Shown here: in pieces, positions 1 through 55,801 of the stretch
Numbering within the stretch: position 1 is the first letter of the stretch
Layout of the letters: the number at the start of each line of letters is the position of its first letter
Assembly (NCBI GenBank): GCA_965221205.1
Contig: OZ244870.1
Location: 1-64,000 of the forward strand
DNA length: 64,000 nucleotides
Direction of reading: 5' to 3'
Origin: CBDFMG01 sp965221205 [NCBI: bacterium]
GTDB lineage: Bacteria > SM23-31
The notes under the pieces: generated by a model
The model's database searches: none
What the model was told of the DNA's origin: nothing
The model's input: only the letters and a program-made list of their open reading frames with translations
Translations under genes and position numbers: made by a program

Positions 1-1376
1 TGTTCCCAGTCTTCAAACCTGATCGGAAAACGTCCTTTTTTTGTACTCGGCCCTTTCCATGAGCCGAAGTCCTGCAAGCCGCCGTAAACATTGTAGGGGT
101 AGTCCATATCGACACCGATTGCATAGAGCTGCGCCATCGATACATTATCAATATGGAACCAATTTTTCCCGGTATCGTAGCTGATAGCAAAACCGTAATC
201 GTAGCCGATGAGCATGTGTTCGCTGTTCTTTGGATCTATCCAGAGAACATGGTTATCTCCGGCGTATCGGATTCCTCGGGCCCATGTGCGGCCGGCATTT
301 GTCGATTTGTGCACCATGGAATCCAACACATATACAACATTGTCATCATTCGGGTCTACTATTATCTGTGCATAGTAATTCGCCCGCTCACCGACAGGGC
401 CCTCGCTCACCTGACGCCACGAATCACCGCCGTTATCGGTCCGATAAACGATGTTGCCGACTACATTTTCACTCGCTGGTTTTCCAACCTGCACCTCTGC
501 CCACCGCTCTTCATATGACAGCTCAGGTGAATTATCGTCTTCGATTATTGCGTAGACAGTATCGGGATTTCTGAGATAGATTGAGAGGCCGATCTTGCCG
601 ATCAGACCCGACGGAAGTCCGTTTGTCAGTTTTATCCACGAATCACCACCGTCGGTCGATTTGTAGATTCCACTTCCCGGGCCAGAACCGGAAAAACCCC
701 ACGGCTTGCGGATACGCTGATAGGCTGCTGCGTACAGCACTTCGGGATCACGGGGATCCATAACAATATCGGTAGCACCGACATAGATGCCACTTTCAAC
801 CACTTCGAGCGATTTACTCCATGTCCTTCCGCCGTTTGTAGTCTTATAGACGCCGCGTTCAGGATTATCGGTGTAGTAGTGCCCCTGCGCCGCTACATAA
901 ACAATATTGGGATTAGATGGATGGACAACGATTCTTCCAATGTGGTGGGACTCTTTCAAACCGATATTTCGCCACGATATTCCGCCATCGGTCGATTTAT
1001 ACACACCATCACCATAATAGGTACTGTTCCTGAGATTCGCCTCACCGGTACCAACATAGACAATATTGTGATTGGTCGGTGCTACGGCAACATCACCAAT
1101 TGACGAGGTCTGTTCATCGTCAAAGATCGATTCAAACGTGATGCCGTTGTTGATTGTTTTCCATAATCCGCCGGGACCCGCACCGACATAAAAGACATAC
1201 GAGTCCTGCTGCGAAACAGCAAATGCCACAACTCTGCCACCCGGCCGGGTCGGGCCGATTTCCCGGTAGTGCACCCAGTCGAGAATATCATCGGAAATCT
1301 TCTGTCCCGCTGCTGTTGAAATGAGCATCAGTGTAACCAAAGCTGTTCCTAACAGTGTTTGCTTCAATCTACTCAT
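1..1376 (-). CDS. VPS10/sortilin-like Asp-box (BNR) repeat secreted protein, C-terminus outside window
   Basis: About 458 codons are visible; the gene runs off the left edge. The ATG at 1376 follows a GAGGAGG ribosome site at 1383-1389 with a 6-nt gap. The product starts with a hydrophobic signal peptide (MSRLKQTLLGTALVTLMLIS) and then the block HYREIGPTRPGG shared with the genes at 1429 and 15813. Several Asp-box motifs (S/T-x-D/N-x-G-x-x-W), such as STDGGISW and TTNGGRTW, mark beta-propeller blades as in sortilin/VPS10 and sialidase-like proteins. The ligand or substrate is unknown; such secreted propellers are often labelled glycosyl hydrolases without proof. It lies 53 nt downstream of the paralogue at 1429-4185, so the two may be co-transcribed. 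Confidence 0.88.
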   Translation of the reverse strand, partial: MSRLKQTLLGTALVTLMLISTAAGQKISDDILDWVHYREIGPTRPGGRVVAFAVSQQDSYVFYVGAGPGGLWKTINNGITFESIFDDEQTSSIGDVAVAPTNHNIVYVGTGEANLRNSTYYGDGVYKSTDGGISWRNIGLKESHHIGRIVVHPSNPNIVYVAAQGHYYTDNPERGVYKTTNGGRTWSKSLEVVESGIYVGATDIVMDPRDPEVLYAAAYQRIRKPWGFSGSGPGSGIYKSTDGGDSWIKLTNGLPSGLIGKIGLSIYLRNPDTVYAIIEDDNSPELSYEERWAEVQVGKPASENVVGNIVYRTDNGGDSWRQVSEGPVGERANYYAQIIVDPNDDNVVYVLDSMVHKSTNAGRTWARGIRYAGDNHVLWIDPKNSEHMLIGYDYGFAISYDTGKNWFHIDNVSMAQLYAIGVDMDYPYNVYGGLQDFGSWKGPSTKKGRFPIRFEDWE

Positions 1377-1428
1377 GAAAATCCTCCTCATTTTGTACTA
1401 ATTCGTTCATTGATATAATTCAGATAAT

Positions 1429-4185: not shown

Positions 4186-4229
4186 AATATTACCCAATAT
4201 CTTTACATTCTATATTTTCACTATTGACA

Positions 4230-12079: not shown

Positions 12080-12250
12080 TCAGAGAATGGATAAATCATC
12101 TTTACTTTCATCGCCTTTTGACCTCTCAGCAACCACCTTGTCGACTTCTTTCATAATATGCTTTCCGAAAATACACTCCATAAAGTCATGGTCGTCTCGT
12201 TCCAGCGCATCCTCTGGCAACTTCCTTTTCCTGGGAGAATTTTGAGTCAT
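12080..12250 (-). CDS. Small charged hypothetical protein divergent from transposase
   Basis: A 56-residue frame starting MTQNSPRKRKLPEDALERDD and ending ERSKGDESKDDLSIL. Its start codon overlaps the transposase ATG (12249) by two bases on the opposite strand. The composition is strongly charged and unlike a random frame, but no family is recognised. It may be a passenger of the IS, a remnant of a host gene, or a chance frame. Confidence 0.3.
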   Translation of the reverse strand: MTQNSPRKRKLPEDALERDDHDFMECIFGKHIMKEVDKVVAERSKGDESKDDLSIL

Positions 12251-13137
12251 GATGAACCTCGTATCCCTGATTGATAAATTCAACTGCGATGACAAATGCC
12301 GTGAGGCACTAGAGCAACTTCGCTGGCCCGCTGGCGTTTATTGTACCCGTTGCGGCGATATGGAAGTCCTCGAACTTCCAAAGCATAACAGATGGGAATG
12401 CAAATCATGCGGCTGCCAGTTCAGCGTTACGGCTGGAACGATCATGCACGACTCCCACCTCTCTCTCCGCAAGTGGTTTCTCGCTATATACTTCATGTGT
12501 GAATCGAAAAAGGGAATCTCCGCGAATCAGATGAAGCGAACTCTCGGAGTTTCCTGCAAAACGGCTTGGTATCTTTGCCACAGGATCCGGCAAGCGATGG
12601 GAAACGAACCTTTTGAAGGCCCTGCGCTTTTCGGAATCGTGGAAGTCGATGAAACGCTCGTGGGCGGTAAAGTGAAGGGAAAGGACCACGCATACAAGGG
12701 CAACAAAGGATGGGTAGTCGGAGCCATCCAGCGCGAAGGTAAGGTTCGCATCGAGCGTATCCCGAACATCAAACGCGGCACTCTCCATGACTTCATCAAG
12801 CGTACCGTGAAAAACGAAGCCGAGGCTATATACACGGATGAATTGAGGTCTTATATCGGCATAGCCGACCATGATACGCGCCATGAGACTGTGAGACATT
12901 CCGAGGAAGAATGGGTTGTGGGAGATGTTCACACAAACAGCATAGAAGGCATATGGAGCCTGTTCAAGCGGTCTCTCTATGGACGTATTCCACAAGATGA
13001 GCATCAAGCACATGGATCGCTACATCGAGGAACTCGAATGGCGATTCAACAACCGCAACAATCCCCACATTTTCCGCGATACGCTGGCTCGGATCATGGA
13101 CACTAAGCATCTTACTTATCGGGAGTTGGTGGCGTAA
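12249..13137 (+). pseudogene. IS1595-family transposase, C-terminus frameshifted
   Basis: A DDE transposase of the IS1595 type. The N-terminal zinc ribbon has CTRCGDMEVL and CKSCGCQF. Catalytic motifs follow: VEVDETLVGGK, IYTDELRSY and HTNSIEGIWSLFKRSLYG. Just after SLYG, near 12977-12982, the frame changes: the original frame ends at 13106 as unrelated sequence, while the +1-shifted frame reads FHKMSIKHMDRYIEELEWRF and NNRNNPHIF and stops at 13137. This is the normal family C-terminus. The total of 889 nt equals 296 codons plus one base, so one extra base explains the break. IS1595 elements are not known for programmed frameshifting, so the copy is probably inactive, or the base is an error. 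Confidence 0.85.
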
Positions 13138-15812: not shown

Positions 15813-18530
15813 TCAATATTTATTTTCATACCAATGGTCTTTTAAAATAACCGCTTTTTGTTCGAATTCATGACCGTTCACACTCAGCATAACCGTGAAC
15901 TCCCCCGGCAAAACCTGTGTACTGATATGGTCGGGGCTGTTTAAATCGAATTCTGTTCCATGGTAAAATATTTGCTGATATTTTGTAAACGGCTGGATCA
16001 TGTTCCATTCGTATCCATTTTTCCATGATTCTTTCTCTTCTTCTGTTCTGTCTCTGCGGGTATCCATTCTCCATTCCACACTGTTCAGTCCCGCTGCTGT
16101 CGTACCGATCATTTCACGTACCAGATGTTGACCTTTATACACCTTAATACTCACAGGATTGTCGATGTTTTCCTTTAAGTAATAATTAACCATTACTCCA
16201 TACGGCTGGTTTTCACCCCAAAAATTTTGCGAACTCACTACAGTTTCACGCGGAATTATCCACTGTACCTTTGGCTCGATTTCAAAAAAATGAGCCTCAT
16301 TTTCAAGCACTTCCTGCGTTAATTCTTGTAACGGTGAAATATCAGTAATAAAAAATCCCCGTCCATAGGTGCCGACAACCAGATCATTTTCACGAGGATG
16401 GATGACCAGATCGTGCACCGGCTGTGTCGGCATATTATTTTGCAAGATTGTCCAATTCATGCCGCCATCAATGGATACGTACACTGCTTTATCATTACCG
16501 ACAAAGATGAGATTCGGATTATTATGGTCTTCTTTTATGACGTTAACCGATTCATTCGGCAAATTACCGGCAATTGAAACCCAAGTTTCGCCGAAATCGG
16601 TGGTTTTATACACAAATGGTCGATAATCGTCTTTATCTCTTCCACGGAGTGAGATATAGGCAGTCCCAGCATAATGATTTGATGCTGTTATTCTGGAAAC
16701 CCAATATTCAGGAAATTCTGGTATGCGGTCATTCAATTTTGTCCATGATTCTCCGTTATTTAATGTGATCCAGACATTTCCGTCATCCGTCCCTGCCCAG
16801 ATGACACCATTCTGTATCGGTGACTCATCAATTGTTGTAATTGCGCCTTTTTCCCGAGGGACCCGGTCGAATTCCGGTCGGCTGACTTTCGCCAGGATGG
16901 GACTGATCTCTTCCCAACTTTCACCCCGGAAGTTGGACCGTAACACCATATTCGCACCGTGAAACAAAACATCTGAATTATGGGGGGAAATTAAAATCGG
17001 TGCATTGAAATTGAACTGAATATCCGGATTACCTCTATACTGAATGTCTCGCCGTTTACCAGTTTTCTGGTCGATTCGTTCGATACCGCCAAACTGCGAC
17101 TCGTTATATACCCATCGGTTGTTCGACGGATCGACCTGCACATGAGACCCGTCTCCTGTTCCCCAGTATTCCCAATCTTCGAGACGGACAGGGTACCTCC
17201 CTTTTTTTGTGCTGGGCCCTTTAAAATTGCCATTATCCTGTGTGCCACCATAAACGTTATAGGGATAATCCATATCGACGGCAATGGCATAAAGCTGGGC
17301 AAGGGGAAGTTCATCAGGGTGATACCAGTTTTGACCTGCATCATAGGTAATTCCCATACCGTGATCGTTTCCTATTAGCATATGTTTAGAGTTATCGGGA
17401 TCAATCCACATTGCATGGTGGTCATCGTAAAAGTCAACCCGGACATGCCTGCGCTGACGCTCCTCTCGGAATGGCATATCCCAAGTATCACCTTCGTCAA
17501 AGGTTTCATACAACTGAACACTGAGAACATAAATATGATTTACATCGTTTGGATCGACCCTGATTTGACCAAAATACGAACCGCCGTTAAGACCTTCGCC
17601 AGTCGGCTGCCCGAGACGTCGCCATGACCGACCACCGTTACCCGTTCGGTACACTCTGTTTTTTGAATTTTCTTCCGAATCATCGGGAATATGGATCACC
17701 GCAAAGAGAATATCCGGATCGTTGAGAAATATATCCAGACCGATTCGTCCCAAGCCGCTTCTGGGCAGTCCGTTTGTGAGTTTTTCCCATGAATTCCCGC
17801 CATTGGTGGTTTTATAGATGCCGCTGCCGTTACCTCCGAGACCTTCATTATGTCTCCCGGCACCCGGGCGGTCATAGCTCGCAGCATACAATACGTCGGG
17901 GTCACGGGGGTCCATAACAAGATCAATAACTCCTATGTACTGTCCGTTTTCTTTCACTTCCAGCGACTTTGTCCACGATTTTCCACCGTTGGTGGTTTTG
18001 TACACGCCGCGCTCAGGATTTTGCGCATTAAATTTGCCCGTTGCAGCAACATAGACAATATCTTGATTTTCCGGATGGATGCGAATTCGTCCAATGCGCC
18101 GAGAATTATGTAAACCCATACTTGTCCATGTCTTTCCGCTGTCGGTTGACTTGTACATACCATCACCCCAATAGTCTCCGTTTGCTTCACCGGAGCCAAC
18201 CCAGACTATTTCATGATTCGAAGGTGCAACGGCAACATCGCCAATTGCAATTGAGTTTTCATGGTCGAAAATTGGTTTGAACGTGACACCATTATTGGAC
18301 GTTTTCCAGAGGCCTCCCGAAGCCGTTGCGACATAAAAAGTAAATGTCTGACCTGCCGGAACAGCAAAATCGACAATTCTCCCACTTTGCCTGGTCGGCC
18401 CGATTGATCGGTAGTGAAATTTCTCGATGATGTTCTGTGAGATCTGCTGGCCAAATGCTACTTGTATTAATAACAGTGCAATAATCCCAACTGCGAGAGT
18501 CAAGCGCATAACCACTCTTTTCTTAATCAT
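15813..18530 (-). CDS. VPS10/sortilin-like Asp-box (BNR) repeat secreted protein
   Basis: 905 residues, a paralogue of the genes at 1 and 1429. The ATG at 18530 follows a GAGGA ribosome site by about 8 nt. A signal peptide (RLTLAVGIIALLLIQVAFGQ) precedes HYRSIGPTRQSGRIVDF, then many Asp-box motifs (STDSGKTW, TTNGGKSW, SIDGGMNW) and the shared tail PGEFTVMLSVNGHEF...KDHWYENKY. It is intact. Its position upstream of the amidase gene suggests a shared mRNA. The enzymatic role, if any, is unknown. Confidence 0.9.
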   Translation of the reverse strand: MIKKRVVMRLTLAVGIIALLLIQVAFGQQISQNIIEKFHYRSIGPTRQSGRIVDFAVPAGQTFTFYVATASGGLWKTSNNGVTFKPIFDHENSIAIGDVAVAPSNHEIVWVGSGEANGDYWGDGMYKSTDSGKTWTSMGLHNSRRIGRIRIHPENQDIVYVAATGKFNAQNPERGVYKTTNGGKSWTKSLEVKENGQYIGVIDLVMDPRDPDVLYAASYDRPGAGRHNEGLGGNGSGIYKTTNGGNSWEKLTNGLPRSGLGRIGLDIFLNDPDILFAVIHIPDDSEENSKNRVYRTGNGGRSWRRLGQPTGEGLNGGSYFGQIRVDPNDVNHIYVLSVQLYETFDEGDTWDMPFREERQRRHVRVDFYDDHHAMWIDPDNSKHMLIGNDHGMGITYDAGQNWYHPDELPLAQLYAIAVDMDYPYNVYGGTQDNGNFKGPSTKKGRYPVRLEDWEYWGTGDGSHVQVDPSNNRWVYNESQFGGIERIDQKTGKRRDIQYRGNPDIQFNFNAPILISPHNSDVLFHGANMVLRSNFRGESWEEISPILAKVSRPEFDRVPREKGAITTIDESPIQNGVIWAGTDDGNVWITLNNGESWTKLNDRIPEFPEYWVSRITASNHYAGTAYISLRGRDKDDYRPFVYKTTDFGETWVSIAGNLPNESVNVIKEDHNNPNLIFVGNDKAVYVSIDGGMNWTILQNNMPTQPVHDLVIHPRENDLVVGTYGRGFFITDISPLQELTQEVLENEAHFFEIEPKVQWIIPRETVVSSQNFWGENQPYGVMVNYYLKENIDNPVSIKVYKGQHLVREMIGTTAAGLNSVEWRMDTRRDRTEEEKESWKNGYEWNMIQPFTKYQQIFYHGTEFDLNSPDHISTQVLPGEFTVMLSVNGHEFEQKAVILKDHWYENKY

Positions 18531-25051: not shown

Positions 25052-25913
25052 ATGACTCTGCAAAGAATTTTCTCACGATTTCCCGACCTGGAATCCTGTA
25101 TTGAACATTTGGAGCGTATACGATTTGGAAATGAAGCATACTGCCCATTATGCGGGGTTGCCGGTGAGTGTGCCCGTAAAGCTGATTCAGGGAGGGTTGG
25201 TCGTTGGAATTGTTATTCCTGCAAGTCAAGTTTTAATGTTCTTTCCGGTACGATTTTTCAAAAGACAAAAATCCCATTACAGCTCTGGTTTCTAGCGATT
25301 GGATTGATTTCTAACGCTAAAAAGAGCCTCTCAAGTTATCAATTAAGCCGTGATCTCGGTATTAATCAAAAATCAGCATGGTATATGCAGCAGCGTATAC
25401 GCTCTGAGATGGCTAGTAAAGAGAGCTCTCTATTACAAGGTATTGTTGAGGTGGATGAAACATACATAGGGGGACGCCCTCGTAATAAAAAACAAAATAA
25501 GCGCGCGGTAGAGGAACTAAAAAGACCCCTGTAATAGGTGCCGTAGAGCGAGACGGAAGCGTTTTAGCCAGTGTTGCAAAAGACCTTTCCGGAAAAGGCG
25601 TCATGGATTTCCTCAATAAATCAGTCAATCCAGAACACTCTTTATTGATAACGGATGAATATAAATCTTATAATGCTGCTTCAAAGAATTTCAACCATGC
25701 GGTTATCAACCATTCACAAGAATACGTTCGGGGGAGTGTACACACAAATACGATTGAAGGTGTCTGGTCTCTTCTCAAGCGTTCCTGGTACGGATCACAT
25801 CACCACTATACGAAGAATTTTACTCCACTATTCATTGCTGAAACATGTTGGAAGTACAACAACCGAAAAATAGTGATATGTTTAGTACCTTTCTAAGGGG
25901 ATGCTTTGCATGA
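25052..25913 (+). pseudogene. IS1595-family transposase with two homopolymer frameshifts
   Basis: The N-terminal zinc ribbon has CPLCGVAGEC and CYSCKSSFNVLSGTIF, followed by VEVDETYIGGRPRNKK. The frame is lost near 25515-25525 (an AAAAA/CCCC context): the next frame resumes with KTPVIGAVERDGSVLASVAK, LLITDEYKSY and VHTNTIEGVWSLLKRSWYG. A second slip at the A5 run near 25866 converts the C-terminus NNRKNSDMFSTFLRGCFA (stop 25911-25913) into IVICLVPF. The span of 862 nt plus two lost bases makes 288 codons. It is distinct from the copy at 12249. Transposition would need a transposase supplied elsewhere. Confidence 0.85.
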
Positions 25914-32335: not shown

Positions 32336-32417
32336 AAGTTTACCCACATTGTAGTATTTTCTTGGTATTCAACAAATCAAATTTGAAATTCCCTTAAAGA
32401 CTGGAGGCAGAAAAATC

Positions 32418-32891
32418 ATGCAGGTTATCGTCTATGTTTCGAACATTACCGAACATATAGAAGGAAAGTTGCGCCACTCCTATGTTCCCGAAAAGAAGGA
32501 ACTGGTAAAGTTCTCAGTGCATGGTGCAATTGCTGAATATTATGGCGTCACTTCAGATATTGCAGATCCACATGCTGTGACACTCGATTATGTTGTTGCT
32601 GTGGCCGGGGGTTGAATACCTGGTACCTTTAACGGCGCGCTGGCAGCGCGCGATGTGACACTCAAAAATAACATTTCGGCTGATGTTAGGGGAGAAGTTG
32701 AATCGGATGATGGTGTTCTCGTTATTAAACGGATAATTGTAAGCTACTCAATCGACGCAGATGAAAGTGACCATGCAACAATTGAACGGATTCATGGAAT
32801 TCATGCAGACTATTGTCCCGTGTACCAGTTATTGAAAAATGTTATTGCGATTTCATCCGAAATTATTTTATTTTCCTGCAGATTAACTTGA
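32418..32891 (+). CDS. OsmC-family protein, probable selenoprotein with in-frame TGA
   Basis: Two open stretches in the same frame are separated by a single TGA at 32613-32615. Read through, they give 157 residues, the usual OsmC-family length. The part before it has ADPHAVTLDYVVAVAGG and the part after has IPGTFNGALAARDV, VLVIKRIIVSYSIDAD and HADYCPVYQLLK. In the family the residue after AxGG is the peroxidatic Cys, and the second Cys is in DYCPV; TGA stands exactly at the first. A 7-bp hairpin with GGC loop follows (32635-32651). GGAGG lies about 10 nt before the ATG. Selenocysteine is therefore likely; a Cys-to-stop mutation is the alternative. The role would be peroxide or hydroperoxide reduction. 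tdh follows 12 nt later. Confidence 0.78.
32635..32651 (+). promoter_or_regulatory. Bacterial SECIS-like hairpin downstream of TGA
   Basis: GCGCGCT (32635-32641), loop GGC (32642-32644), AGCGCGC (32645-32651): seven perfect pairs. The apical loop starts 26 nt after the TGA, within the spacing usual for bacterial SECIS elements, and its first two bases are G, as the consensus asks. The hairpin is GC-rich in an otherwise AT-rich region. Confidence 0.65.
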
Positions 32892-32903: not shown

Positions 32904-33968
32904 ATGGATAAAGAGTACGTACCAATACAAAAGATGATGAAAGCACTGGTAAAAAAACACCCAAAACCGGGACTCTGGTTAGAGGAGATACCGGTTCCAG
33001 AAATTGGAATAGACGATGTTCTCATAAAGGTTCACAAAACCGGTATTTGCGGTACTGATGTCCATATCTGGGAGTGGGACCCATGGGCACAAAAAACGAT
33101 ATCGGTACCAATGGCTATCGGCCATGAATTTGTCGGATCAATCGAAAAGCTCGGCAGTAATGTATACGATTTTGCGGTTGGAGATATTGTATCGGGTGAG
33201 GGTCATGTCGTGTGTGGTAAATGCCGCAACTGCCTCGCGGGAAGGCGCCACCTCTGTAACGCCATAAAAGGTATCGGCGTCAACCGGCCCGGGGCTTTTG
33301 CCGAGTACATTTCAATTCCGGTTACTAATGTCTGGCATGCCGACCAGACTATTCCCTTGGATATCATCAGCATATTTGATCCGTTCGGGAATGCCGCACA
33401 TACCGCTCTCTCGTTTAAAATTCTGGGTGAAGATGTCTTAATCACAGGTGCCGGCCCAATCGGGCTCATGGCAACAGCTATTGCAAAACACGCTGGTGCG
33501 CGGTTTATTGTTACCACCGACGTCAACCCCTACCGCCTTGCACTGGCGGAGAAAATGGGTGCAACCGTCGCGCTGAACGTCCGCGAGAAAAAAGTTGCTG
33601 ACCTCCAGAAAGAACTCGGCATGAAAGAGGGGTTCGATGTTGGCCTCGAAATGTCCGGAAGCGGCGATGCACTCAATGAATTGATTACAAATATGTGCCA
33701 CGGCGGAAAAATTGCAATCCTCGGAATCCCATCGAATGATCTGGCGATTGACTGGAACACAGTTATTTTCAACATGCTCACAATAAAAGGGATTTACGGC
33801 CGTGAAATGTACGAAACGTGGTACATTATGCAATCGATGATCCAGACCGGTCTCGATATTTCTTCTGTTATTACACACAAATTTCCGTATACGGAATTCG
33901 AAGAAGGATTTACCATTATGTGCTCCGGAAACTCGGGGAAAATTATTCTCGACTGGACCAACGTGTAA
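32904..33968 (+). CDS. tdh: L-threonine 3-dehydrogenase, zinc alcohol-dehydrogenase family
   Basis: 354 residues from 32904. An internal ATG pair (MMKAL) matches the usual Tdh start, so the first ten residues are uncertain. Seen: [20 protein letters not shown] (catalytic-zinc Cys and the Tdh-specific D-V-H block), GHEFVG, structural-zinc cysteines in [32 protein letters not shown], the NAD-binding [17 protein letters not shown], and [14 protein letters not shown]. It converts threonine to 2-amino-3-ketobutyrate; the usual partner kbl is not adjacent. It lies 12 nt after the OsmC-family gene and is probably co-transcribed with it. Confidence 0.92.
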
Positions 33969-34059: not shown

Positions 34060-34839
34060 ATGAAAATAAAATTATTTCAAGTTGATATGTTCTCAGACAA
34101 AGTTTTTTCAGATAAACTTGCAATTGTCTGTATGCTTGAAGAATGGGTGGACGATATGCTGCTTCAGTCAATTGCAAATCAGAACTGCCATTCCGAGACT
34201 GCATTTATTATCAAACGAGACAACAAGTATGAGCTCAGGTGGTTTACACCACTGGTCGAGGTAGACTTGTGCGGTCATGCAATACTCGACTCTGCATTTG
34301 TCATCCTCAACGAGCTTGAACCTTCCCTCAGTAAAGTTGTTTTCAAAACAAAAAGCGGCACACTGACGGTTCAACGGAAAGATGGCATGCTTGAAATGGA
34401 TTTTCAGGCCTATCATCCGAAACCGTGTGGTCCTCCGGATGATCTGTTAAAAGGACTTGGTGCAGAGCCGCAAGAATTGCTGTTTACCGAGGATTACGTT
34501 GCTGTCTATGACAATCTCACGACGGTTCGGCAGTTAAAATCCGATTCCACACTCTTCAAGACTATTCCACTGCGGTGGATTATCGTAACGGCACCGGAAG
34601 AGCAAAGCGATTTTGTCTCACGTTTTATTGCGCCGAAAATGGGCATTGATGAAGACCCTGTGACCGGATCGGCACACTGCTCGCTTACACTGTACCGGGC
34701 ACAGCGTCTCGGTAAAACAAAACTTTATACAATTCAGGTATCCAAACGGGGTGACGAACTCTATTGTGAACTCAAGGACAACCGAGTCCTGATCTCCGGA
34801 AAAGCCATCAAAGTCCCGTCGGGTGAGATGTTTGTGTAG
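34060..34839 (+). CDS. PhzF-family isomerase-like protein
   Basis: 259 residues with the two-lobed PhzF/diaminopimelate-epimerase-like fold. N-terminal lobe: KLFQVDMFSDKVFSDKLAIV and the active-site Glu region NCHSETAFII; RWFTPLVEVDLCGHAILDSA is the typical F/W-TP-x-x-E-x-x-L/D-C-G-H-A block. C-terminal lobe: APKMGIDEDPVTGSAHCSL, the family's D-E-D-P-V-T-G-S-A-H motif. The substrate is unknown: most PhzF relatives outside phenazine clusters are uncharacterised and no phz genes are near. It lies 91 nt after tdh. Confidence 0.9.
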   Translation: MKIKLFQVDMFSDKVFSDKLAIVCMLEEWVDDMLLQSIANQNCHSETAFIIKRDNKYELRWFTPLVEVDLCGHAILDSAFVILNELEPSLSKVVFKTKSGTLTVQRKDGMLEMDFQAYHPKPCGPPDDLLKGLGAEPQELLFTEDYVAVYDNLTTVRQLKSDSTLFKTIPLRWIIVTAPEEQSDFVSRFIAPKMGIDEDPVTGSAHCSLTLYRAQRLGKTKLYTIQVSKRGDELYCELKDNRVLISGKAIKVPSGEMFV

Positions 34840-35890: not shown

Positions 35891-36748
35891 TCAATTCATC
35901 GATATATTCATTGTTGTATTATCCATTGGCCTTGAGACCGAATCCGGTGGTATAACGGCCTCGGGGGCGGGTGGCCGGTATCTGAGGGCACTATGCGGTC
36001 TCTTATGATTATACTCATTTCGCCAGCGTTCCACAAGCACTTTTGCTTCGTGTAAGGTATCGAAGATTTCCCGGTTGAGCACTTCATCACGCAGTTTGCC
36101 ATTGAACGACTCAATATACCCGTTCTCCCATGGACTGCCTGGTTCAATATACAATGTTTTTACTCCCAGGCGCATGAGCCATGTCCGGACCGCTTGAGCA
36201 GTGAACTCTGTGCCATTATCACTTCTCAGGTGAACCGGAACTCCTCGCTGCACGAACAGTGTTGCAAGATGTTCTATGACGTCATTGTGAGTCAGCCTCC
36301 TGCCTACCACAATTGCCTGACACTCCCGACTGTATTCATCTAATATTGTTAACAAACGATAGCTCCTTCCCTCTCGGGTTCGTGCTTGCATGAAGTCATA
36401 ACTCCAGACATGATCCCGGTACGCAGGTCGCAGCCGAATACACGAACCGTCATTGAGCCATAACCGTTTGCGCTTCGGTTGCCTCCGGGGAACTTTTAAT
36501 CCTTCTCGACGCCACAAACGCTCCACTCTCTTATGATTGACCTTGAAGCCTTCTGGCTGTAACAGTGCGGTAATTCGTCGATAACCATACCGACCATACT
36601 GCGTGGCCAACTCGACCATACGTTGCACGAACACCGGTTCATCCGCAGGAGAAATCGGGCGATATTGATGAGTGCTGCGCGGTACTCCCAACACACTACA
36701 GGCCCGGCGCTGCGAGATCTCGAGAGTCGTGCAAAGATGCTGCACCAC
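35891..36748 (-). CDS. IS3-family transposase OrfB, DDE integrase domain
   Basis: 285 residues in this frame; the natural product is probably OrfAB made by -1 frameshifting. An N-terminal HTH_21-like region (VPRSTHQYRP) is followed by the rve integrase core with DDE residues: YDFMQARTREGRSYRLLTIL (D), HLRSDNGTEF (D), and PGSPWENGYIESFNGKLRDE (E 35 residues later). It ends with the EWRN.YNHKRPHSALRYRPP-like signature. It looks complete and active. Confidence 0.92.
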   Translation of the reverse strand: MVQHLCTTLEISQRRACSVLGVPRSTHQYRPISPADEPVFVQRMVELATQYGRYGYRRITALLQPEGFKVNHKRVERLWRREGLKVPRRQPKRKRLWLNDGSCIRLRPAYRDHVWSYDFMQARTREGRSYRLLTILDEYSRECQAIVVGRRLTHNDVIEHLATLFVQRGVPVHLRSDNGTEFTAQAVRTWLMRLGVKTLYIEPGSPWENGYIESFNGKLRDEVLNREIFDTLHEAKVLVERWRNEYNHKRPHSALRYRPPAPEAVIPPDSVSRPMDNTTMNISMN

Positions 36749-36768
36749 CTCCCGTCGCTTCGCCGGGC

Positions 36769-37056
36769 TCAGAAGTTTTTTGCATCAACCGCCAGAGTCT
36801 CATTGAGGATTTGAATATCCAACTCTTTCTCGGCAACCAGGCGTTTCAGGCGAATATTCTCTCTCTCTAACGCTTTCAATCGTTTCGCCTGATTCACCCG
36901 AAGACCACCATACTCCTTTCGCCAACGATAATAGGTCTGCTCTGTAACCTCAATCTGGCGAGCAGCTTGTTGAACCGACTGACCTTGAGCGAGCAGTACT
37001 TCTGCCTCTCGAAGCTTGTGGATAATTTGTTCTGATGTGTGAATTCTACGTGCCAT
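36769..37056 (-). CDS. IS3-family transposase OrfA, helix-turn-helix protein
   Basis: 95 residues. RRIHTSEQIIHKLREAEVLL and VTEQTYYRWRKEYGG form the HTH_Tnp_1 DNA-binding region, followed by a leucine-zipper-like RLKALERENIRLKRLVAEKE. The ribosome site AGGAG is 8 nt before the ATG at 37056. It ends at a TGA right after the slippery heptamer. Confidence 0.92.
   Translation of the reverse strand: MARRIHTSEQIIHKLREAEVLLAQGQSVQQAARQIEVTEQTYYRWRKEYGGLRVNQAKRLKALERENIRLKRLVAEKELDIQILNETLAVDAKNF
36775..36781 (-). promoter_or_regulatory. Programmed -1 frameshift heptamer A AAA AAC
   Basis: Coding-strand AAAAAAC near the end of orfA. A -1 slip here gives KLLSPAKRREVVQHLC, joining orfA directly to the orfB frame, the standard way IS3-family elements make OrfAB transposase. 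Confidence 0.75.
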
Positions 37057-44238: not shown

Positions 44239-45711
44239 TCAATTGACAAGTAATATTTGCTCATTTGGCGGATGGAGGAATTCGACTCCCCTGCTTGTTA
44301 CAATATGATTACCCTCTATATTGATTGATATTGGAAAACCGGGCCGTTCGGGGAGGTTCGTATGGACTTGATATTCAAGAGAAAAAAGATGATTTTCTTG
44401 TATCCTTAAATGAGACCGGTCTAACCGGAACGGTGCAACTGAAGGTCCGACTGTCACAACGGTACCACCGTTATTCCCTTCGCTGTGCAGGTCAATAGAA
44501 ATTCCCGACATATCCGTACCTGCGAGCGCTTCTTGTATCATTTTGTAATCTTCAGTACCAATATTCATAAACGGCGTATGAATATACCCCGCATCTTCTA
44601 AACCGGCAGCTATTGCCACAAATGTTTCCTCTGCGGTTCTCCCGATTTTTACATTTCTGCGAATTACTTCCCGGGCATCTATCGCACGGTCGTAGGCATG
44701 CAGCAAACTTTCAGGAATGCTTGATTCTTCCTCTCTTAGAATATAAAAATTACGTTTATAATCTGTTGTGAAGTAGTTCAGATATCGTGTTCCGATGTCA
44801 AATGTCCCAAAATCACCGCGATGAATGACATATTCGGGGTGGTGAATCCACCAACGGACGTCAGGGGGATCAATCGGATCGGACTGTGCCGAATAGAGGA
44901 TGCGCGGGATACTGATGCTCCTCGTATAATCCCGTAAGAGACTCTGTTTGAGAAACTGCTCCTGTACCCACCAGCCGACATCGCCCAGCGTTGTTTCCTC
45001 CGGTGTGATAACTTCATCGGATAAGGCTCGTTCAAGAATCTGGCGATGCATCTCCAGTGCATCTGAAAAGGCGGTGATTTCGCTTTGAACCCGTCGTACC
45101 CGAAAATCGGTAATTACATATTCCGCAGAGACGATCCTTTCCGCATATTTTGATCCCAGTGCTCTTTCCAGTTTTATATACTCGGAGTGAGAAATCCCAT
45201 CAGATACAGCAAGCCAAGAAGATGTATTGACTGCAATAGTTTCCGGATCACGTTCGGCAACAAAATCCCGAATTTCGTCGGGAGAACCAAATATGTCGTA
45301 GAGATCGGACGGCCCTCCGGAGTGATGTGTCAGCCAACGCGGGTCCACTTCGTCACTGCCGGGGATGTTTGACCGATCAAATAAATCAGAGACTTGAAGA
45401 GGCGGCCTGTTACCATCACCGAGAACAGCCCGCTCAATCCTGCTTCCACCTCGATCTGTAAATATAATATAGCCGGTAACCGACCCAAAATGAACCGCCA
45501 TTGGATCAGAATTTCCGGCACGAATTACGTGTATCCACATATCGACCTTGTTATCACGCATGGCTCCCGGCAGAATCAGGTCAAATTTTTCTTTACGTAT
45601 CAGATGAAGAATCTCAGATGCTGCCTTTGCCGAAATGACATCAGGCTGAGCGCCCGAAATCGATACAGTGCTCAGCATGGATATAACAATTATAATTAAA
45701 CGCGCAATCAT
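44239..45711 (-). CDS. M24-like (Xaa-Pro aminopeptidase-like) exported protein, array copy A
   Basis: 490 residues, last in the tandem series. Signal peptide LIIIVISMLSTVSISGAQ. N-terminal creatinase-like block LILPGAMRDNKVDMWIHVIR. In the C-terminal pita-bread region I align FDIGTRYLNYFTTDYKRNF (two Asp), SIDLHSEGNN (His), FSLEYQVHTN (Glu) and INIEGNHIVTSRGVEF (Glu), so all five canonical metal ligands have a plausible counterpart, although the spacing of the two Asp differs by one. Of the four copies it is the best candidate for an active metallopeptidase. It lies 27 nt after copy B. Confidence 0.8.
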   Translation of the reverse strand: MIARLIIIVISMLSTVSISGAQPDVISAKAASEILHLIRKEKFDLILPGAMRDNKVDMWIHVIRAGNSDPMAVHFGSVTGYIIFTDRGGSRIERAVLGDGNRPPLQVSDLFDRSNIPGSDEVDPRWLTHHSGGPSDLYDIFGSPDEIRDFVAERDPETIAVNTSSWLAVSDGISHSEYIKLERALGSKYAERIVSAEYVITDFRVRRVQSEITAFSDALEMHRQILERALSDEVITPEETTLGDVGWWVQEQFLKQSLLRDYTRSISIPRILYSAQSDPIDPPDVRWWIHHPEYVIHRGDFGTFDIGTRYLNYFTTDYKRNFYILREEESSIPESLLHAYDRAIDAREVIRRNVKIGRTAEETFVAIAAGLEDAGYIHTPFMNIGTEDYKMIQEALAGTDMSGISIDLHSEGNNGGTVVTVGPSVAPFRLDRSHLRIQENHLFSLEYQVHTNLPERPGFPISINIEGNHIVTSRGVEFLHPPNEQILLVN

Positions 45712-45738
45712 ATTCTCACTCTCTCGTGCCGGTTACGT

Positions 45739-47133
45739 TCAACGGATCAGGATAACTTCCTCATTTGCCGGTTGAATCCATTCAACGCCGTTGTTGGTGA
45801 CAACTTGAGGGTTCGAAAAATTTATTGACATGGGATATCCGGGCCGCTCAGGAAGATTCGTGTGAACCGCATATTCAAATGCAAAAATATGGTTCTCCGG
45901 AATTTTTAAGTGATGCGTAGCCTGCCGGAAATCAGATATGGACGCCCCGATCCGATTGATGATGTCGGAATCTCCACCATTGCGATTATTACCCATAGCA
46001 TGAAGGTCAACGTAAAATCCTGACTTATTGGTATTTGCAAGTGCTCTTTGGAGAGTCTTATAATCCTCTGTACCAATATCGATAAAAGGAGTATAAATAT
46101 AGTCTGCCTCTTCCAATGCAGAAACAATGGCTTGCAAACATTCGCCGGCAGTCATTCCGACTTTTATCTGCTGCCGCATAATACCCTGTGCTTTCTTTCC
46201 CTGATCCCAGGCATACTGTATACTCTCAGGAACATGTGTTTCACCTTCCCGTAAAATATATGCATGAATTTTCGTATCTACACCAAATCCCATATAGCTC
46301 CCTGTCCCTCCGGCACCGCCGGTAAAAAAATCACCACGCTGCAATACATGATTAGGATCATTAATCCAAAAGCGAGCATCTGGCGGAGCAGTACGTTCAG
46401 ATATTGCTGTATAATAAATCCGGCCGCCTAATTCTCCCAGCGTCGTTTTACCGGGCACAACATTAGATAATCTTTCTAAATTACGCTGGCGGGCCAATGC
46501 TAATATTTCGGTCTGTGCAGCAACTTCCCTGCTTGTCCTTCTCGTCACGAATTCTATAACGAGATTCTCTGCAGACACAATTCTCTGAGAATATTTCGGT
46601 CCCAATATTCTTTCCAGTTTTACGTATTCGGAATGTGAAATCCCATCTGCCGTTGATATCCAGGAGGAGGTATTGACAGCAATCGTCTTTGGATCACGTT
46701 CGGCAACAAATTCTGTCAATTCGTCGTAAACTGAGAAGTCAAGAGTGCCATAATCATATCCCGAAACAGCTCGTGCGATTTCAACAGAACCGTAAACATC
46801 TATATCTTCGACAGCTCCTGCCCCGCCAAAAACCGCCCGCTCAATCCTGTCCCCCAGGTCTGTAAAAATCAAATAACCGGACGTTGATCCAAATTGTGGG
46901 ATCATTGGATCAGGATCTCCGGCACGTGTGACATGAATCCACATATCCACATTACTGTCGCGCATGGCTCCGGGAAGAATGAGTTTAAGCTTTTCGTTTC
47001 TCATTAGACGGAGTGCTTCCGAATCGGTACCCTGTGTACGCCGCGTCAGCGGGGTTGTTGAGCCTCGTTGTGCATCTGCATTTGGCACTGCAAATATCAC
47101 AGATATGAGTAAAATCATAACTCGTAATAGCAT
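45739..47133 (-). CDS. M24-like exported protein, array copy B
   Basis: 464 residues. GAGGAGG precedes the ATG at 47133; signal peptide MILLISVIFAVPNADA. It shares LILPGAMRDSNVDMWIHVTR and the M24-like C-terminal half with the other copies. The His (VDLHAMGN) and one Glu (FAFEYAVHTN) are kept. The first Asp ligand is replaced within the glycine-rich FTGGAGGTGSYMGFGVDTK, and the last Glu position reads INFSNPQVVT. By eye it has therefore lost two metal ligands, and may be a binding protein or pseudo-enzyme rather than a peptidase. Confidence 0.78.
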   Translation of the reverse strand: MLLRVMILLISVIFAVPNADAQRGSTTPLTRRTQGTDSEALRLMRNEKLKLILPGAMRDSNVDMWIHVTRAGDPDPMIPQFGSTSGYLIFTDLGDRIERAVFGGAGAVEDIDVYGSVEIARAVSGYDYGTLDFSVYDELTEFVAERDPKTIAVNTSSWISTADGISHSEYVKLERILGPKYSQRIVSAENLVIEFVTRRTSREVAAQTEILALARQRNLERLSNVVPGKTTLGELGGRIYYTAISERTAPPDARFWINDPNHVLQRGDFFTGGAGGTGSYMGFGVDTKIHAYILREGETHVPESIQYAWDQGKKAQGIMRQQIKVGMTAGECLQAIVSALEEADYIYTPFIDIGTEDYKTLQRALANTNKSGFYVDLHAMGNNRNGGDSDIINRIGASISDFRQATHHLKIPENHIFAFEYAVHTNLPERPGYPMSINFSNPQVVTNNGVEWIQPANEEVILIR

Positions 47134-47229
47134 AACATCCTCCTCAAAAACAATTAAATGACGGCTTCTTGTTAAAATTTATTTTTAATCTTTAATAGAG
47201 CTCAATTTTCAATATTCTGGTTAAGAGAA

Positions 47230-48675
47230 TCATTTTATAATGAATATCTCCTCATTAGGTGGTTGAATAAATTCAACGCCCTTACTGGTAATAATCTGAG
47301 GATTTGAAATGTTAAATGCCAGAGGATAGCCAGGTCTTTCAGCAATCTTCTTATGGACCATATATTCAAAAGCAAAGAGATGATTCTCCTGAATTTTCAA
47401 ATGGTGCGTGAATGTTCGATGTGCCGCCATAGAAGGACCTTCTGTTCTCGTGTCGAATTCAACTTCCCTGGTATCGATGGCATTATTAATCATGCTGTGA
47501 TTATCGATAGAAAATCCCGGTTTATCAGTATTAGCGAGCACTCTTTGAATCATTTTATAGTCTTTTTCACCAATATCACTAAATGGTGTAAAGATATATC
47601 CTGCACCTTCCATAGCTTCCACCATAGCAGCCAACGATTCACCGGCAGTCATACCGACTCTCATATGCGGCCGCATAATCCATTGACCTGCTATCGCCAG
47701 ATCAAAGACCTCCTGTATAAAGTTGGGTACTTTTGATTCCCCTTCTCTTAAAATATAGGCATGAATTTTCGTGTCTACTCCAAAACCCATATAACTGCCC
47801 AAGGGGCCACCTCCGCCACCACCAACAAACAGATCACCTCTCTGTAAAACATAGTCAGGGTCATTAAGAAATCTCCTGATGTCCGGTTGAGATTTCGGTA
47901 CGGTTTTATCAGGCGTATTAACTGCCGAATAGTAAATCCGGGCACCTATTTCTCCCGCCGTCGTTACACCCGGTATAACCTGAGATAACCGTTGTTTAGA
48001 ACGTTGGCGGGCCAATGCCAATATTTCGACCTGTGCTGCCACCTCCCTGCTTGTTCTTCTTAACAGGAAATCTGAAATAACTCTCTCCGCAGAGATTATC
48101 CTTGCAGAATATTTCGGTCCAAGTATTGTTTGCAACTTCAAAAATTGTGTATACGAAATACCATCGGATACTGGCAGAAAATCGGAATAATTAACAGCAA
48201 TCGTCTGCGGATCGCGTTCAACAACAAAATCTGTTATTTCGTCGAAAACATCGGGGACCGAATATCCCTGACTCGGGTCAGAATTGTCATAATTATAACC
48301 GGCAAATGCCCGTGCGACATCTTCAGAACCCCATACATCAATATTTTCAATAGCGCCGGCACTTCCACCAAAGTGAGCCCGTTCAATTCTATCTCCCAAA
48401 TCAGTAAATATCAAATAACCCGATGTTTGTCCAAACTGCATAATCAAAGGATCTTGACCACGTGTAACGTGTATCCACATGTCCACATTGTTGTCACGCA
48501 TGGCTCCCGGCAGAACAAGGTCAAGTTTGTCGTTTCTCATAAGTCGGAGAGCTTCTCTATCGGTTTCCGGCGTACGCTGCGGCAGCGGATCTACAATATC
48601 TCTTCCTCGCTGTGCATTGACATTTGGTACTGCAAATATCACAGATAGTAATAATATCAGAACTCGAACCAACAT
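47230..48675 (-). CDS. M24-like exported protein, array copy C
   Basis: 481 residues from the ATG at 48675 (MLVRVLILLLSVIFAVPNVN), chosen because GAGGAG lies just upstream and the signal peptide starts there; an upstream in-frame ATG at 48693 would place the ribosome site inside the gene. It shares LVLPGAMRDNNVDMWIHVTR with its neighbours. The region of the first Asp ligand is FVGGGGGGPLGSYMGFGVD; His is in SIDNHSMINN, Glu in FAFEYMVHKK, and the last-ligand position is NISNPQIIT. The ligand losses are the same as in copy B. It is 97 nt upstream of copy B. Confidence 0.78.
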   Translation of the reverse strand: MLVRVLILLLSVIFAVPNVNAQRGRDIVDPLPQRTPETDREALRLMRNDKLDLVLPGAMRDNNVDMWIHVTRGQDPLIMQFGQTSGYLIFTDLGDRIERAHFGGSAGAIENIDVWGSEDVARAFAGYNYDNSDPSQGYSVPDVFDEITDFVVERDPQTIAVNYSDFLPVSDGISYTQFLKLQTILGPKYSARIISAERVISDFLLRRTSREVAAQVEILALARQRSKQRLSQVIPGVTTAGEIGARIYYSAVNTPDKTVPKSQPDIRRFLNDPDYVLQRGDLFVGGGGGGPLGSYMGFGVDTKIHAYILREGESKVPNFIQEVFDLAIAGQWIMRPHMRVGMTAGESLAAMVEAMEGAGYIFTPFSDIGEKDYKMIQRVLANTDKPGFSIDNHSMINNAIDTREVEFDTRTEGPSMAAHRTFTHHLKIQENHLFAFEYMVHKKIAERPGYPLAFNISNPQIITSKGVEFIQPPNEEIFIIK

Positions 48676-48780
48676 AACCTTCTCCTCATTCATTGAACAG
48701 TGGTATTGTGCTACTATGTTAATTTATTAATTATTTCAAGTGTGATCGAAATTTGTAATGTTTTACTTTTTGCTTAAAAC

Positions 48781-50166
48781 TTAATGAATAAGTATTATTT
48801 TCTCATTAGGTGCCCTAAGCCATTCAACTCCCCGACTGGTTATGATCTGAGGATTCGAAAAATTCATTGCAAGTGGAAAACCCGGCCTTTCAGGAATGTT
48901 CATGTGGACCATATATTCAAAAGCAAAAATGAAATTCTCTGGAATTTTTAGATGAAGCGTGTTTACCCGAAAGGGCGCCATTGAAGGTCCTTCTACTCTC
49001 AAGTTACCGCCATTATTACCAAAAGAATGATTGTCAATGGAAAATCCCGGTTTATCAGTATTAGCGAGCGCCTTCTGTATTATCTTATAATCTTCAGTGC
49101 CATTGTCTAAAAATGGAGTATATACATAGCCTGCATCTTCCATGGCTTTGACCATAGCATCCAAAGATTCCCCGGCGGTCATGCCGACTTTCATATGTGG
49201 CCGCAAGATATCCAATGCTTGTATCCCCAGATCAAAGACTTTCTGAAAACTCTCAGGAACACTGGTTTCCTCTTCTCTCAAAATATAAGCATGAACTTTA
49301 CTATCTGTCCCAAAGCCCATATATTTAAGATCAGTATTAAAAATAAAATAATCACCACGCTGAAGAACATAGTCAGGGTGACGGATCCACCATCTGACGT
49401 CTGGTGGTTCAACAGGTTCAGATACTGCTGAATAGTAAACCCGAAGACCCCCCGGTGACCATGTGCTATAATCTACTAAACCCCGCTTGAATGCCTCTTC
49501 ATTCGCCCACCAGGTTATATCTCCTATCGTTGTAACACCCGGCTCGATACGAGATAAAGCCCGTGAAAAATTCTGACGATTCATTTCCACAGTATTGGTC
49601 ATTGCTGCTACTTCCCTCAGAGTCCTTCTTGAAAGAAAATCTGTAATGACATTCTCCGCTGAGACAATCCTCTCAGAATATTTTGGTCCTAATATCTTTT
49701 CCAATTGCAGATATTGGGTATAGGAAATCCCATCTGCTGCGGAAAGCCAATCAGAATAATTTACAGCAATCGTTTTCGGATCTCGTTCGGCGACAAATTC
49801 TGTTATTTCATTGAAGACTTCGGGAACCGAAAAACCCTGCCTAGGGTCTGAATTGTTATAATTATACCCATCAATAGCTCGTGAAATGTTGACTGAACCG
49901 TGTACGTCAATATTTTCAACGGCTCCTGAACTACCGAACACAGCCCGCTCAATCTTATCACCCAGATCGGTAAAAATCAAATAACCGGAGGTTGATCCAA
50001 ATTGCTGAACCAGTGGATCTCTGCCACGAGCGACGTGTATCCACATGTCCACATTGTTGTCGCGCATGGCTCCCGGCAGAATAAGATCAAGTTTTTCGTT
50101 TCGTAAAAGACGAAGTACTTCTCCGCCAGTCTTTGCTGTATGAACACCCGGCTGTGAAGTGGACAA
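48781..50166 (-). CDS. M24-like protein, array copy D, signal peptide disrupted
   Basis: About 461 residues from a TTG at 50166 (MSTSQPGVHTAKTGGEVLRL). Upstream in frame reads KLRGAFSLCKCFLLSTSQPG up to a TAA, resembling a signal peptide without a start codon. The gene may therefore have lost its 5' end or use an unseen start. The body is intact and shares LILPGAMRDNNVDMWIHVAR. The first Asp position reads FNTDLKYMGFGTD (Asn at the aligned site), His is in SIDNHSFGNN, Glu in FAFEYMVHMN, and the last-ligand position is NFSNPQIIT. It is the most upstream copy of the array. Confidence 0.7.
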   Translation of the reverse strand: MSTSQPGVHTAKTGGEVLRLLRNEKLDLILPGAMRDNNVDMWIHVARGRDPLVQQFGSTSGYLIFTDLGDKIERAVFGSSGAVENIDVHGSVNISRAIDGYNYNNSDPRQGFSVPEVFNEITEFVAERDPKTIAVNYSDWLSAADGISYTQYLQLEKILGPKYSERIVSAENVITDFLSRRTLREVAAMTNTVEMNRQNFSRALSRIEPGVTTIGDITWWANEEAFKRGLVDYSTWSPGGLRVYYSAVSEPVEPPDVRWWIRHPDYVLQRGDYFIFNTDLKYMGFGTDSKVHAYILREEETSVPESFQKVFDLGIQALDILRPHMKVGMTAGESLDAMVKAMEDAGYVYTPFLDNGTEDYKIIQKALANTDKPGFSIDNHSFGNNGGNLRVEGPSMAPFRVNTLHLKIPENFIFAFEYMVHMNIPERPGFPLAMNFSNPQIITSRGVEWLRAPNEKIILIH

Positions 50167-55042: not shown

Positions 55043-55801
55043 GTGAATCCTGTATCAAAAAAAATAATGATTGAAGCAAACGGATTGAGTAAATACTATG
55101 GTCAGTTTATTGCAATAAAAGACATTACGTTTGCTATACCTGAAGGTCAAATTGTCGCGTTTCTTGGTCCAAATGGCGCAGGAAAAACTACGACCATGAA
55201 AATTTTCAGTGGATTTTTAGCACCAAGTTCAGGTACCAGAGCAATAGCCGGGCTTGATGTACAAAGCGATAGGCTTAAAGTGGCGAAACGGCTTGGGTAT
55301 TTGCCTGAAAATGGTCCTCTGTATCAGGATATGACACCATTAGAGTTACTTTCCTTTTTTGGAGAAGTACGGGGCCTTGTACCAGAAAAATGTAAGGAAC
55401 GGATTGATTTTGTTAACAGGTTGTGCTCTTTACAGGAAGTACTCGATAAACCAATCAACAAGCTCTCTCGAGGATATCGTCAACGTGTCGGTATGGCACA
55501 GACCCTGCTTCACGATCCGGATGTCTTGATTATGGATGAGCCGACGGCAGGTTTAGATCCTAACCAGATTCGAGACTTTCGAACAAATATTAAAGAGTTA
55601 CGAAAAACCAAAACTATCCTGATTTCCACGCACATATTACACGAGGTTGATGTCATTGCTGACCGAGTGCTTTTAATAAATAATGGAAGACTCGTTTTTG
55701 ATGGAACACCGAATAAGTTAAAAGAAAAGGAGTCTCTCGAGCAATCGTTTTACCGTTTAACTGAGAATCATGTAGAGTTGCAGGAGGGTAATCAAATATG
55801 A
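55043..55801 (+). CDS. ABC transporter ATP-binding protein, GldA-like
   Basis: 252 residues. GTG start at 55043 chosen because GGAGG lies 7 nt upstream; the internal ATG at 55067 has no such site. Walker A GPNGAGKTTTMKIFSG, signature LSRGYRQRVGMAQTLLHDPD and Walker B VLIMDEPTAGLDP are complete, then the switch His in ISTHILHEVD. The LSxGYxQRVG form is typical of GldA and related ABC-2 exporters. It overlaps the permease gene by 4 nt (ATGA). With the next two genes it forms a Gld-type ABC system of the kind needed for gliding or surface export in Bacteroidota and relatives. Confidence 0.92.
   Translation: MNPVSKKIMIEANGLSKYYGQFIAIKDITFAIPEGQIVAFLGPNGAGKTTTMKIFSGFLAPSSGTRAIAGLDVQSDRLKVAKRLGYLPENGPLYQDMTPLELLSFFGEVRGLVPEKCKERIDFVNRLCSLQEVLDKPINKLSRGYRQRVGMAQTLLHDPDVLIMDEPTAGLDPNQIRDFRTNIKELRKTKTILISTHILHEVDVIADRVLLINNGRLVFDGTPNKLKEKESLEQSFYRLTENHVELQEGNQI

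What the first reader, a model, noticed from the sequence alone, without database searches (positions are those of the whole stretch)
32418..32891. OsmC-family gene with TGA in place of the peroxidatic cysteine: probable selenoprotein
Seen: one in-frame TGA (32613-32615) splits an otherwise complete 157-codon OsmC-family gene. It sits after DYVVAVAGG, exactly where the family has its reactive Cys, and the resolving Cys (DYCPV) is kept downstream. A 7-bp GC hairpin with a GGC loop starts its loop 26 nt after the TGA, fitting the bacterial SECIS pattern. Established: OsmC-like selenoproteins and UGA/SECIS decoding by SelB are known in bacteria. Inference: Sec is inserted here. The alternative is a Cys-to-stop mutation, a single base change.
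Basis: partly seen in the sequence, partly recalled or inferred. Interest (0 to 1): 0.9.

Follow-up and report, generated by a model that had tools for sequence, protein, structure and literature searches.

The report
OsmC-like selenoprotein gene with in-frame UGA
This bacterial gene, which looks broken by a stop codon, is very probably an intact gene for a selenium-containing protein of an antioxidant family, because its relatives in several bacterial groups carry the same "stop" at the same place, followed by an RNA hairpin.

Summary
Window 32418-32891 (+) is a 157-codon OsmC-family gene split by one in-frame TGA at 32613-32615, with a 7-bp hairpin (loop GGC) at 32635-32651. The selenoprotein reading is strongly supported by comparison. 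Of 82 family rows (the window plus 81 relatives) the codon at this column is TGA in 80, TGG in one, TGC in one. Stem codons are held by synonymous constraint, and the window reaches a stem that 4 of 20,000 synonymous recodings reach. Identity to the closest relative is 52% on both sides of the TGA. Of 56 tested genomes with the gene, SelB passes its cut-off in 45 and tRNA-Sec in 47. U66 and C133 align with the two Cys of E. coli OsmC. Limits: no genome is held for the window; the nearest relative's genome (G034) shows no SelA, SelB or tRNA-Sec; one TGA row near the window (L161) lacks this stem; nothing is tested at the bench. OsmC-like selenoproteins have been in print since 2005, so this is a new member of a known kind. 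Its motif, U-x-x-G-[T/N], differs from the printed UxxT, so it may be an unlisted subfamily in which Sec is the rule.

The parts
32418..32891 (+). OsmC-family selenoprotein gene (157 codons plus terminal TGA), UGA read as Sec at codon 66
32403..32407 (+). GGAGG, likely ribosome-binding site, 10 nt before the ATG
   Evidence: sequence; inference
32613..32615 (+). in-frame UGA, predicted Sec66, at the column of the first OsmC Cys
   Evidence: TGA in 80 of 82 family rows, window included; aligned with the first Cys of E. coli OsmC
32635..32651 (+). predicted bacterial SECIS hairpin: 7 bp (32635-32641 with 32645-32651), loop GGC (32642-32644)
   Evidence: codon conservation
32586..32588 (+). Asp57, D in 82 of 82 rows, nine residues before Sec, aligned with a Glu of E. 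coli OsmC
32814..32816 (+). Cys133, predicted resolving Cys (DYCPV); C in 80 of 82 rows, gap in 2

Best explanation
The gene encodes an OsmC-family peroxidase-type protein. UGA codon 66 is decoded as selenocysteine by SelB and tRNA-Sec, directed by the hairpin that begins 19 nt after the UGA. Sec66 takes the place of the first OsmC Cys on the long helix, reacts with an oxidant (probably a hydroperoxide), and is resolved by Cys133, giving a selenenylsulfide that a cell reductant reopens. Shown here by sequence: the family, the shared UGA, the conserved hairpin, the kept frame, the second Cys, the predicted fold, and Sec machinery in most tested carriers. Inferred: actual Sec insertion in this organism, peroxidase activity, substrate and reductant.
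For: UGA column: 80 of 82 rows TGA, window included. By search: 4 of 4 matches; 4 of 4 strong matches; 16 of 16; 36 of 41, the other five weak. Hairpin: five codons over the stem have codon entropy 0-0.30 against a median of 0.72 at 37 other conserved codons outside residues 66-80, no overlap, p=1.7e-4; the window's choice of those codons has probability about 1.4e-4 under its own usage; outer six pairs intact in 49 of 50 TGA rows among the window and L082-L150, interrupted in both non-TGA rows; compensatory changes at 2 pairs, 4 cells. Frame: 52% identity on both sides of the TGA to L096. Machinery: SelB 45 of 56, tRNA-Sec 47 of 56, at least one in 51 of 56; SelB in 57 of 82 genomes of the likely phylum. 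Fold: AlphaFold2 pLDDT 92.7; the 50 PDB chains listed are mostly titled OsmC or Ohr, TM by query 0.57-0.73.
Against: No own genome; no tRNA gene found in the window. The genome of the closest relative (G034) shows no SelB over cut-off, no tRNA-Sec and no SelA. L161, a TGA row that groups with the window in the tree without firm support, lacks three of the six outer pairs; it folds into another hairpin. The window protein sits on a long branch, 1.04 against 0.27-0.45 for the rows beside it, and has U-I-P-G-T where most rows of its clade have U-L-T-G-T, so loosening cannot be excluded. Compensatory changes are few. 13 of 20 genomes without the gene also have SelB and tRNA-Sec, so co-occurrence alone is weak.
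Confidence: 0.92

Rival explanations
1. A Cys-to-stop mutation made a pseudogene or a 65-residue stub.
For: A single base separates TGA from TGC or TGT. The window gene has a long branch. G034, the genome of the nearest relative, lacks visible Sec machinery.
Against: Same codon at the same column in 80 of 82 rows, window included. Downstream identity equals upstream identity. Hairpin kept against the codon bias.
Confidence: 0.03
2. UGA is read as another residue (a code with UGA as Trp or Gly, or plain read-through), without selenium.
For: One relative has TGG at the column (L128).
Against: TGA ends 4 of 15 other window genes looked at (starting 15813, 29272, 55043, 55798) as well as this one. 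One relative (L129) and E. coli OsmC have Cys at the column. Most tested carriers have tRNA-Sec and SelB.
Confidence: 0.01
3. The family is a selenoprotein family, but this copy lies in a lineage that lost or is losing Sec use and is no longer decoded.
For: Long branch and changed motif; 25 of 82 genomes of the likely phylum show no SelB over cut-off, though they are of unstated completeness.
Against: Residues nearly fixed in the other rows (H35, Y42, T55, D57, G69, L75, G92, C133, P134) are kept, as is the hairpin; no other stop or frameshift.
Confidence: 0.04

Closest known systems
OsmC-like selenoprotein (Sargasso Sea family; PMC1088965, listed again in PMC2398784, PMC9312934, PMC13188914)
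   Same: PF02566 / OsmC-like, Sec at a redox position, predicted SECIS just after the UGA.
   Different: Printed motif is UxxT; here it is U-x-x-G-[T/N], with Thr or Asn at +4. PMC2398784 prints 5 selenoprotein sequences and 161 in the column whose total equals its total of Cys homologues; the rows found here are 80 TGA, 1 TGC, 1 TGG.
E. coli OsmC and bacterial Ohr (lipoyl-dependent thiol peroxidases)
   Same: Fold, two-Cys layout, an acidic residue nine before the first Cys.
   Different: Sec for the first Cys; 14-19% identity to E. coli OsmC; Asp for Glu; reductant and substrate untested.
YhfA-type OsmC-like proteins
   Same: OsmC fold, two Cys; chain 1ml8, which I recall as YhfA, is among the PDB matches (titles it only structural genomics).
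   Different: Said in PMC8945050 to lack the Arg and Glu next to the Cys; here Arg or Lys at 19 and Asp57 are kept in all 82 rows, but their role is untested.

Membership tests
OsmC family (PF02566) | match over the curated score | tested here: met
   42 bits against 27.5
OsmC family (PF02566) | OsmC fold | tested here: met
   model pLDDT 92.7; the 50 PDB chains listed are mostly titled OsmC or Ohr, a few only hypothetical, redox or structural genomics
OsmC family (PF02566) | two reactive Cys columns | tested here: met
   U66 and C133 align with residues 59 and 125 of E. coli OsmC, both Cys (numbers counted from the alignment)
OsmC/Ohr peroxidase | catalytic Arg and Glu | tested here: inconclusive
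   Asp57 aligns with a Glu, D in 82 of 82 rows; R or K at 19 in 82 of 82, but residue 19 lies outside the aligned part
OsmC/Ohr peroxidase | hydroperoxide reduction with lipoylated reductant | not testable with these tools
   needs enzyme assay
Bacterial selenoprotein | in-frame UGA at a Cys column, conserved in homologues | tested here: met
   80 of 82 rows, window included
Bacterial selenoprotein | SECIS-like hairpin shortly after UGA with G in a small loop | tested here: met
   exceptions L132 and L161
Bacterial selenoprotein | Sec machinery in the same genome | tested here: inconclusive
   own genome not held; carriers: SelB 45 of 56, tRNA-Sec 47 of 56; none seen in G034
Bacterial selenoprotein | selenium in the protein | not testable with these tools
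   needs 75Se or mass spectrometry
Printed OsmC-like selenoprotein subfamily (motif UxxT) | Thr at +3 from Sec | tested here: not met
   +3 is Gly in 82 of 82 rows; +4 is Thr in 65, Asn in 16, Val in 1; printed motif

The most novel reading that the evidence does not exclude
The window gene belongs to an OsmC subfamily, U-x-x-G-[T/N], that is not separately listed among known selenoproteins, in which Sec is the normal state and Cys the exception. It occurs in all four phylum samples searched, keeps a near-invariant coding hairpin in three of them and a differently built one in most rows of the fourth. Discovery methods that ask for Sec/Cys pairs could have passed over a family with so few Cys forms.
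Probability: 0.5. Interest if true: 0.5.

Novelty: new member of a known kind. Interest (0 to 1): 0.42.

Why it matters
Gene finders that treat TGA as stop would call this gene two fragments or a pseudogene. The case gives a well-supported selenoprotein in poorly known bacteria and a family in which Sec, not Cys, is the rule, which makes it a good test object for why Sec is kept. OsmC/Ohr Cys enzymes are biochemically described, so a direct Sec/Cys comparison is feasible.

Tried and rejected
Single-protein scans for relatives found none: viral contigs, plasmids, phages, genome contigs. Later the Cys form in plasmids and alignment A2 in viral contigs also found none. phmmer against PDB sequences and NCBIfam gave nothing. 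Total folding energy does not set the hairpin apart; Watson-Crick stem length under synonymous recoding does. A shared gene neighbourhood was looked for by eye in the loci of 14 relatives and none was evident; neighbour families were not searched. Other frames that span a TGA in the window were listed and read by eye only, not searched for homologues.

Rows dropped: seven distant Cys-type OsmC rows (L098-L104, under 100 bits) and duplicate loci L094, L106, L135 before the 82-row count. Loci were taken for 30 of 43 matches and 30 of 41; of the untaken, those with E below 1e-20 are listed with TGA. The 48-row codon test left out L161-L190 and L131-L134, and its comparison set left out residues 66-80. 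The pair count left out L128, L129 and L161-L190. One search counted stems without L161-L190; one search added them. The tree left out rows of 140 residues or fewer and used 6 of the 7 distant rows. The 35 carriers were not tested for Sec machinery.

Full report
What is there. Window 32418-32891 (+) reads as one 157-codon frame broken only by TGA at 32613-32615 and ending in TGA at 32889-32891. The read-through protein matches Pfam OsmC over its cut-off. A GGAGG lies 10 nt before the ATG. A zinc-type alcohol-dehydrogenase gene (32904-33968) follows after 12 nt, then a PhzC/PhzF-type gene (34060-34839); an operon is possible but not shown.

Whose genome. No genome is held for the window. In a tree of aceE proteins the nearest rows by path are records titled Deferribacteres JdFR-76, Zixiibacteriota, Anaerolineales, another Deferribacteres and Bacteroidetes, and the smallest well-supported set holding the window has 13 rows of mixed groups, so this gene places it only loosely. 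A fused GldF/GldG-like protein of the window (55798-58473) has 16 full-length matches of 60-63% identity among 82 genomes of the phylum of G011, G053 among them; G011 itself has only a weak match and G034 none at the limit used. G011 is the genome of a record titled candidate division KSB1. I take the window to come from that phylum, near G053 rather than G011; this is inference. PMC9012183 (passages seen) reports selA, selB and selD in KSB1 bins except one clade, and no selC; here tRNA-Sec passes its cut-off in G011, G052 and G053. G053 also has SelB and SelA over cut-off.

The TGA is a family trait. A search of 30 genomes that hold aceE relatives gave four homologues, each with a TGA, at the same column as the window's. 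In the phylum of G011, 11 of 82 genomes matched: four strong matches, each with one TGA, and seven weak ones (E 6e-8 to 2e-6) without a stop, which are distant OsmC proteins with Cys. In the phylum of G013 (a record titled Anaerolineales) 38 of 400 genomes matched, 35 of them with a TGA-bearing match; those without are G411, G487 and two pieces in G227, and one of three pieces in G359. In the phylum of G014, 16 of 18 genomes matched, all with TGA. In the phylum of G017 (a record titled Desulfobacterales) 39 of 395 matched, 35 with a TGA-bearing match; five weak matches (E about 1e-16) have no stop. On 82 rows, the window included and duplicates of loci removed, the codon at the column is TGA 80, TGG 1, TGC 1. 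The closest relative, L096, is 52% identical, 32/62 before and 44/85 after the TGA. One relative, L082, has an additional TAA, a damaged copy or an assembly error.

The hairpin. In the window it is seven Watson-Crick pairs with loop GGC, 26 nt between UGA and loop. In 48 related rows the five testable codons across the stem are nearly fixed (GGC 42 of 43, GCG 47 of 47, CTG 48 of 48, GCG 45 of 47, CGC 36 of 47), with entropy below that of all 37 other conserved codons compared. The window keeps these codons though its own usage makes the combination a 1.4e-4 event, and 4 of 20,000 synonymous recodings reach 7 Watson-Crick pairs. Among 47 distinct rows 95.7% of pair cells are standard, with compensatory changes at two pairs in four cells; 0 of 500 shuffles reach the covariation score, a control that does not keep relatedness, and slid versions score lower. 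The outer six pairs are intact in 49 of 50 TGA rows of the window and L082-L150 (exception L132) and interrupted in both non-TGA rows, L128 and L129. Against this, L161, a TGA row from the phylum of G017 placed near the window in the tree, lacks three of these six pairs and folds into another hairpin. The 29 rows L162-L190 also lack this stem; all 29 have at least six of the seven pairs of another, earlier one, and 23 have all seven. The terminal TGA of the window gene has no such hairpin.

Machinery. Of 56 genomes with the TGA gene, SelB passes its cut-off in 45 and tRNA-Sec in 47; five (G034, G237, G367, G509, G520) have neither. Of these, SelA passes in G237 and G367; G520 has a SelB piece under the cut-off. 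One search used stricter filters, so weak tRNA matches may be lost. Among 20 genomes without the gene, 13 have SelB and 13 tRNA-Sec. G013 has tRNA-Sec and SelA but only weak SelB pieces. G034, which holds the window gene's closest relative, shows no SelB over cut-off, no tRNA-Sec and no SelA; its completeness is not stated, and this is the main result against the reading. G011 shows SelB and tRNA-Sec but no SelA, so single absences in these genomes are not conclusive. In the likely phylum SelB passes in 57 of 82. SelD was not searched.

Protein. AlphaFold2 on 35 rows gives pLDDT 92.7, and the 50 PDB chains listed, of 61 with E at most 0.001, are mostly titled OsmC or Ohr. A profile comparison (probability 91%, E 1e-6) puts U66 and C133 on the two Cys of E. 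coli OsmC and Asp57 on its Glu nine residues before the first Cys. D57 and G69 are present in 82 of 82 rows, C133 in 80 with 2 gaps, Arg or Lys at 19 in 82. PMC8945050 (passages seen) describes Ohr/OsmC as two-Cys peroxidases reduced by lipoylated proteins, and YhfA as lacking the Arg and Glu. The window also holds aceE, an aceF-like gene (under its model's cut-off) and lpd, a possible source of such a reductant; no link is shown.

Known or new. OsmC-like selenoproteins were listed in 2005 with motif UXXT and three sequences (PMC1088965, passages seen). PMC2398784 (passages), PMC9312934 (passage) and PMC13188914 (section 7 in full and passages) each print one OsmC-like entry with motif UxxT; PMC7435645 prints the name alone (passage). 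The main text of PMC12013277 holds no word beginning with Osm. PMC2673044 names Ohr/OsmC among thiol oxidoreductases (passage); PMC11223507 was seen in a listing only. My searches that joined selenoprotein or selenocysteine with OsmC showed no separate description of this subfamily; supplements were not read. Here +3 is Gly in all 82 rows and +4 is Thr in 65. PMC13188914 counts a different Sec motif as a distinct subfamily, so this may be an unlisted one; but the printed sequences could not be compared and the printed motif might be loosely counted. PMC1088965 kept only candidates with at least two Cys homologues and over half TGA/Cys pairs, a filter under which a nearly all-Sec family could fall; that is inference. 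I therefore file the gene as a new member of a known kind.

Caution. The window protein has a long branch (1.04) and an altered motif. With no close relative held, I cannot separate fast but functional evolution from early decay. The kept frame, residues and hairpin favour function. On checking, the L161 exception was added, and the confidence lowered from 0.93 to 0.92 for it.

Noticed in passing
window 25052-25896 (+): Transposase-like reading frame in two pieces (25052-25534 and 25603-25896), apparently a broken insertion-sequence transposase; a similar uninterrupted one lies at 12249-13106. Identified by eye only.
   Followed up: no
window 35891-37056 (-): Two adjacent frames that look like an IS3-type element (36769-37056 and 35891-36748). 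Recognised by eye.
   Followed up: no
window 44239-50166 (-): Four tandem frames of 461-490 aa with similar sequence starts; the one scanned (44239-45711) hits Peptidase_M24.
   Followed up: partly
window 1-1391, 1429-4197, 15813-18530 (-): Three related proteins that share a stretch like HYRxIGPTRxGGR near the N-terminus, one cut by the window edge (by eye).
   Followed up: no
L128 (G411) and L129 (G487): The only two family rows without TGA (TGG and TGC); both also have an interrupted hairpin stem, as expected if the hairpin serves only UGA decoding.
   Followed up: partly
L161-L190: Relatives from the phylum of G017 carry TGA, most in a U-M-M-G-T motif, with another stem-loop placed earlier.
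   Followed up: partly
G013:C1:135772-135897 and 121848-121942: In a genome that carries the gene, SelB appears only as weak pieces, one in a 111-residue frame about 14 kb from tRNA-Sec; possibly a frameshifted selB or an assembly error.
   Followed up: no
L082 1774: A TAA in frame 28 codons after the TGA in one relative.
   Followed up: no
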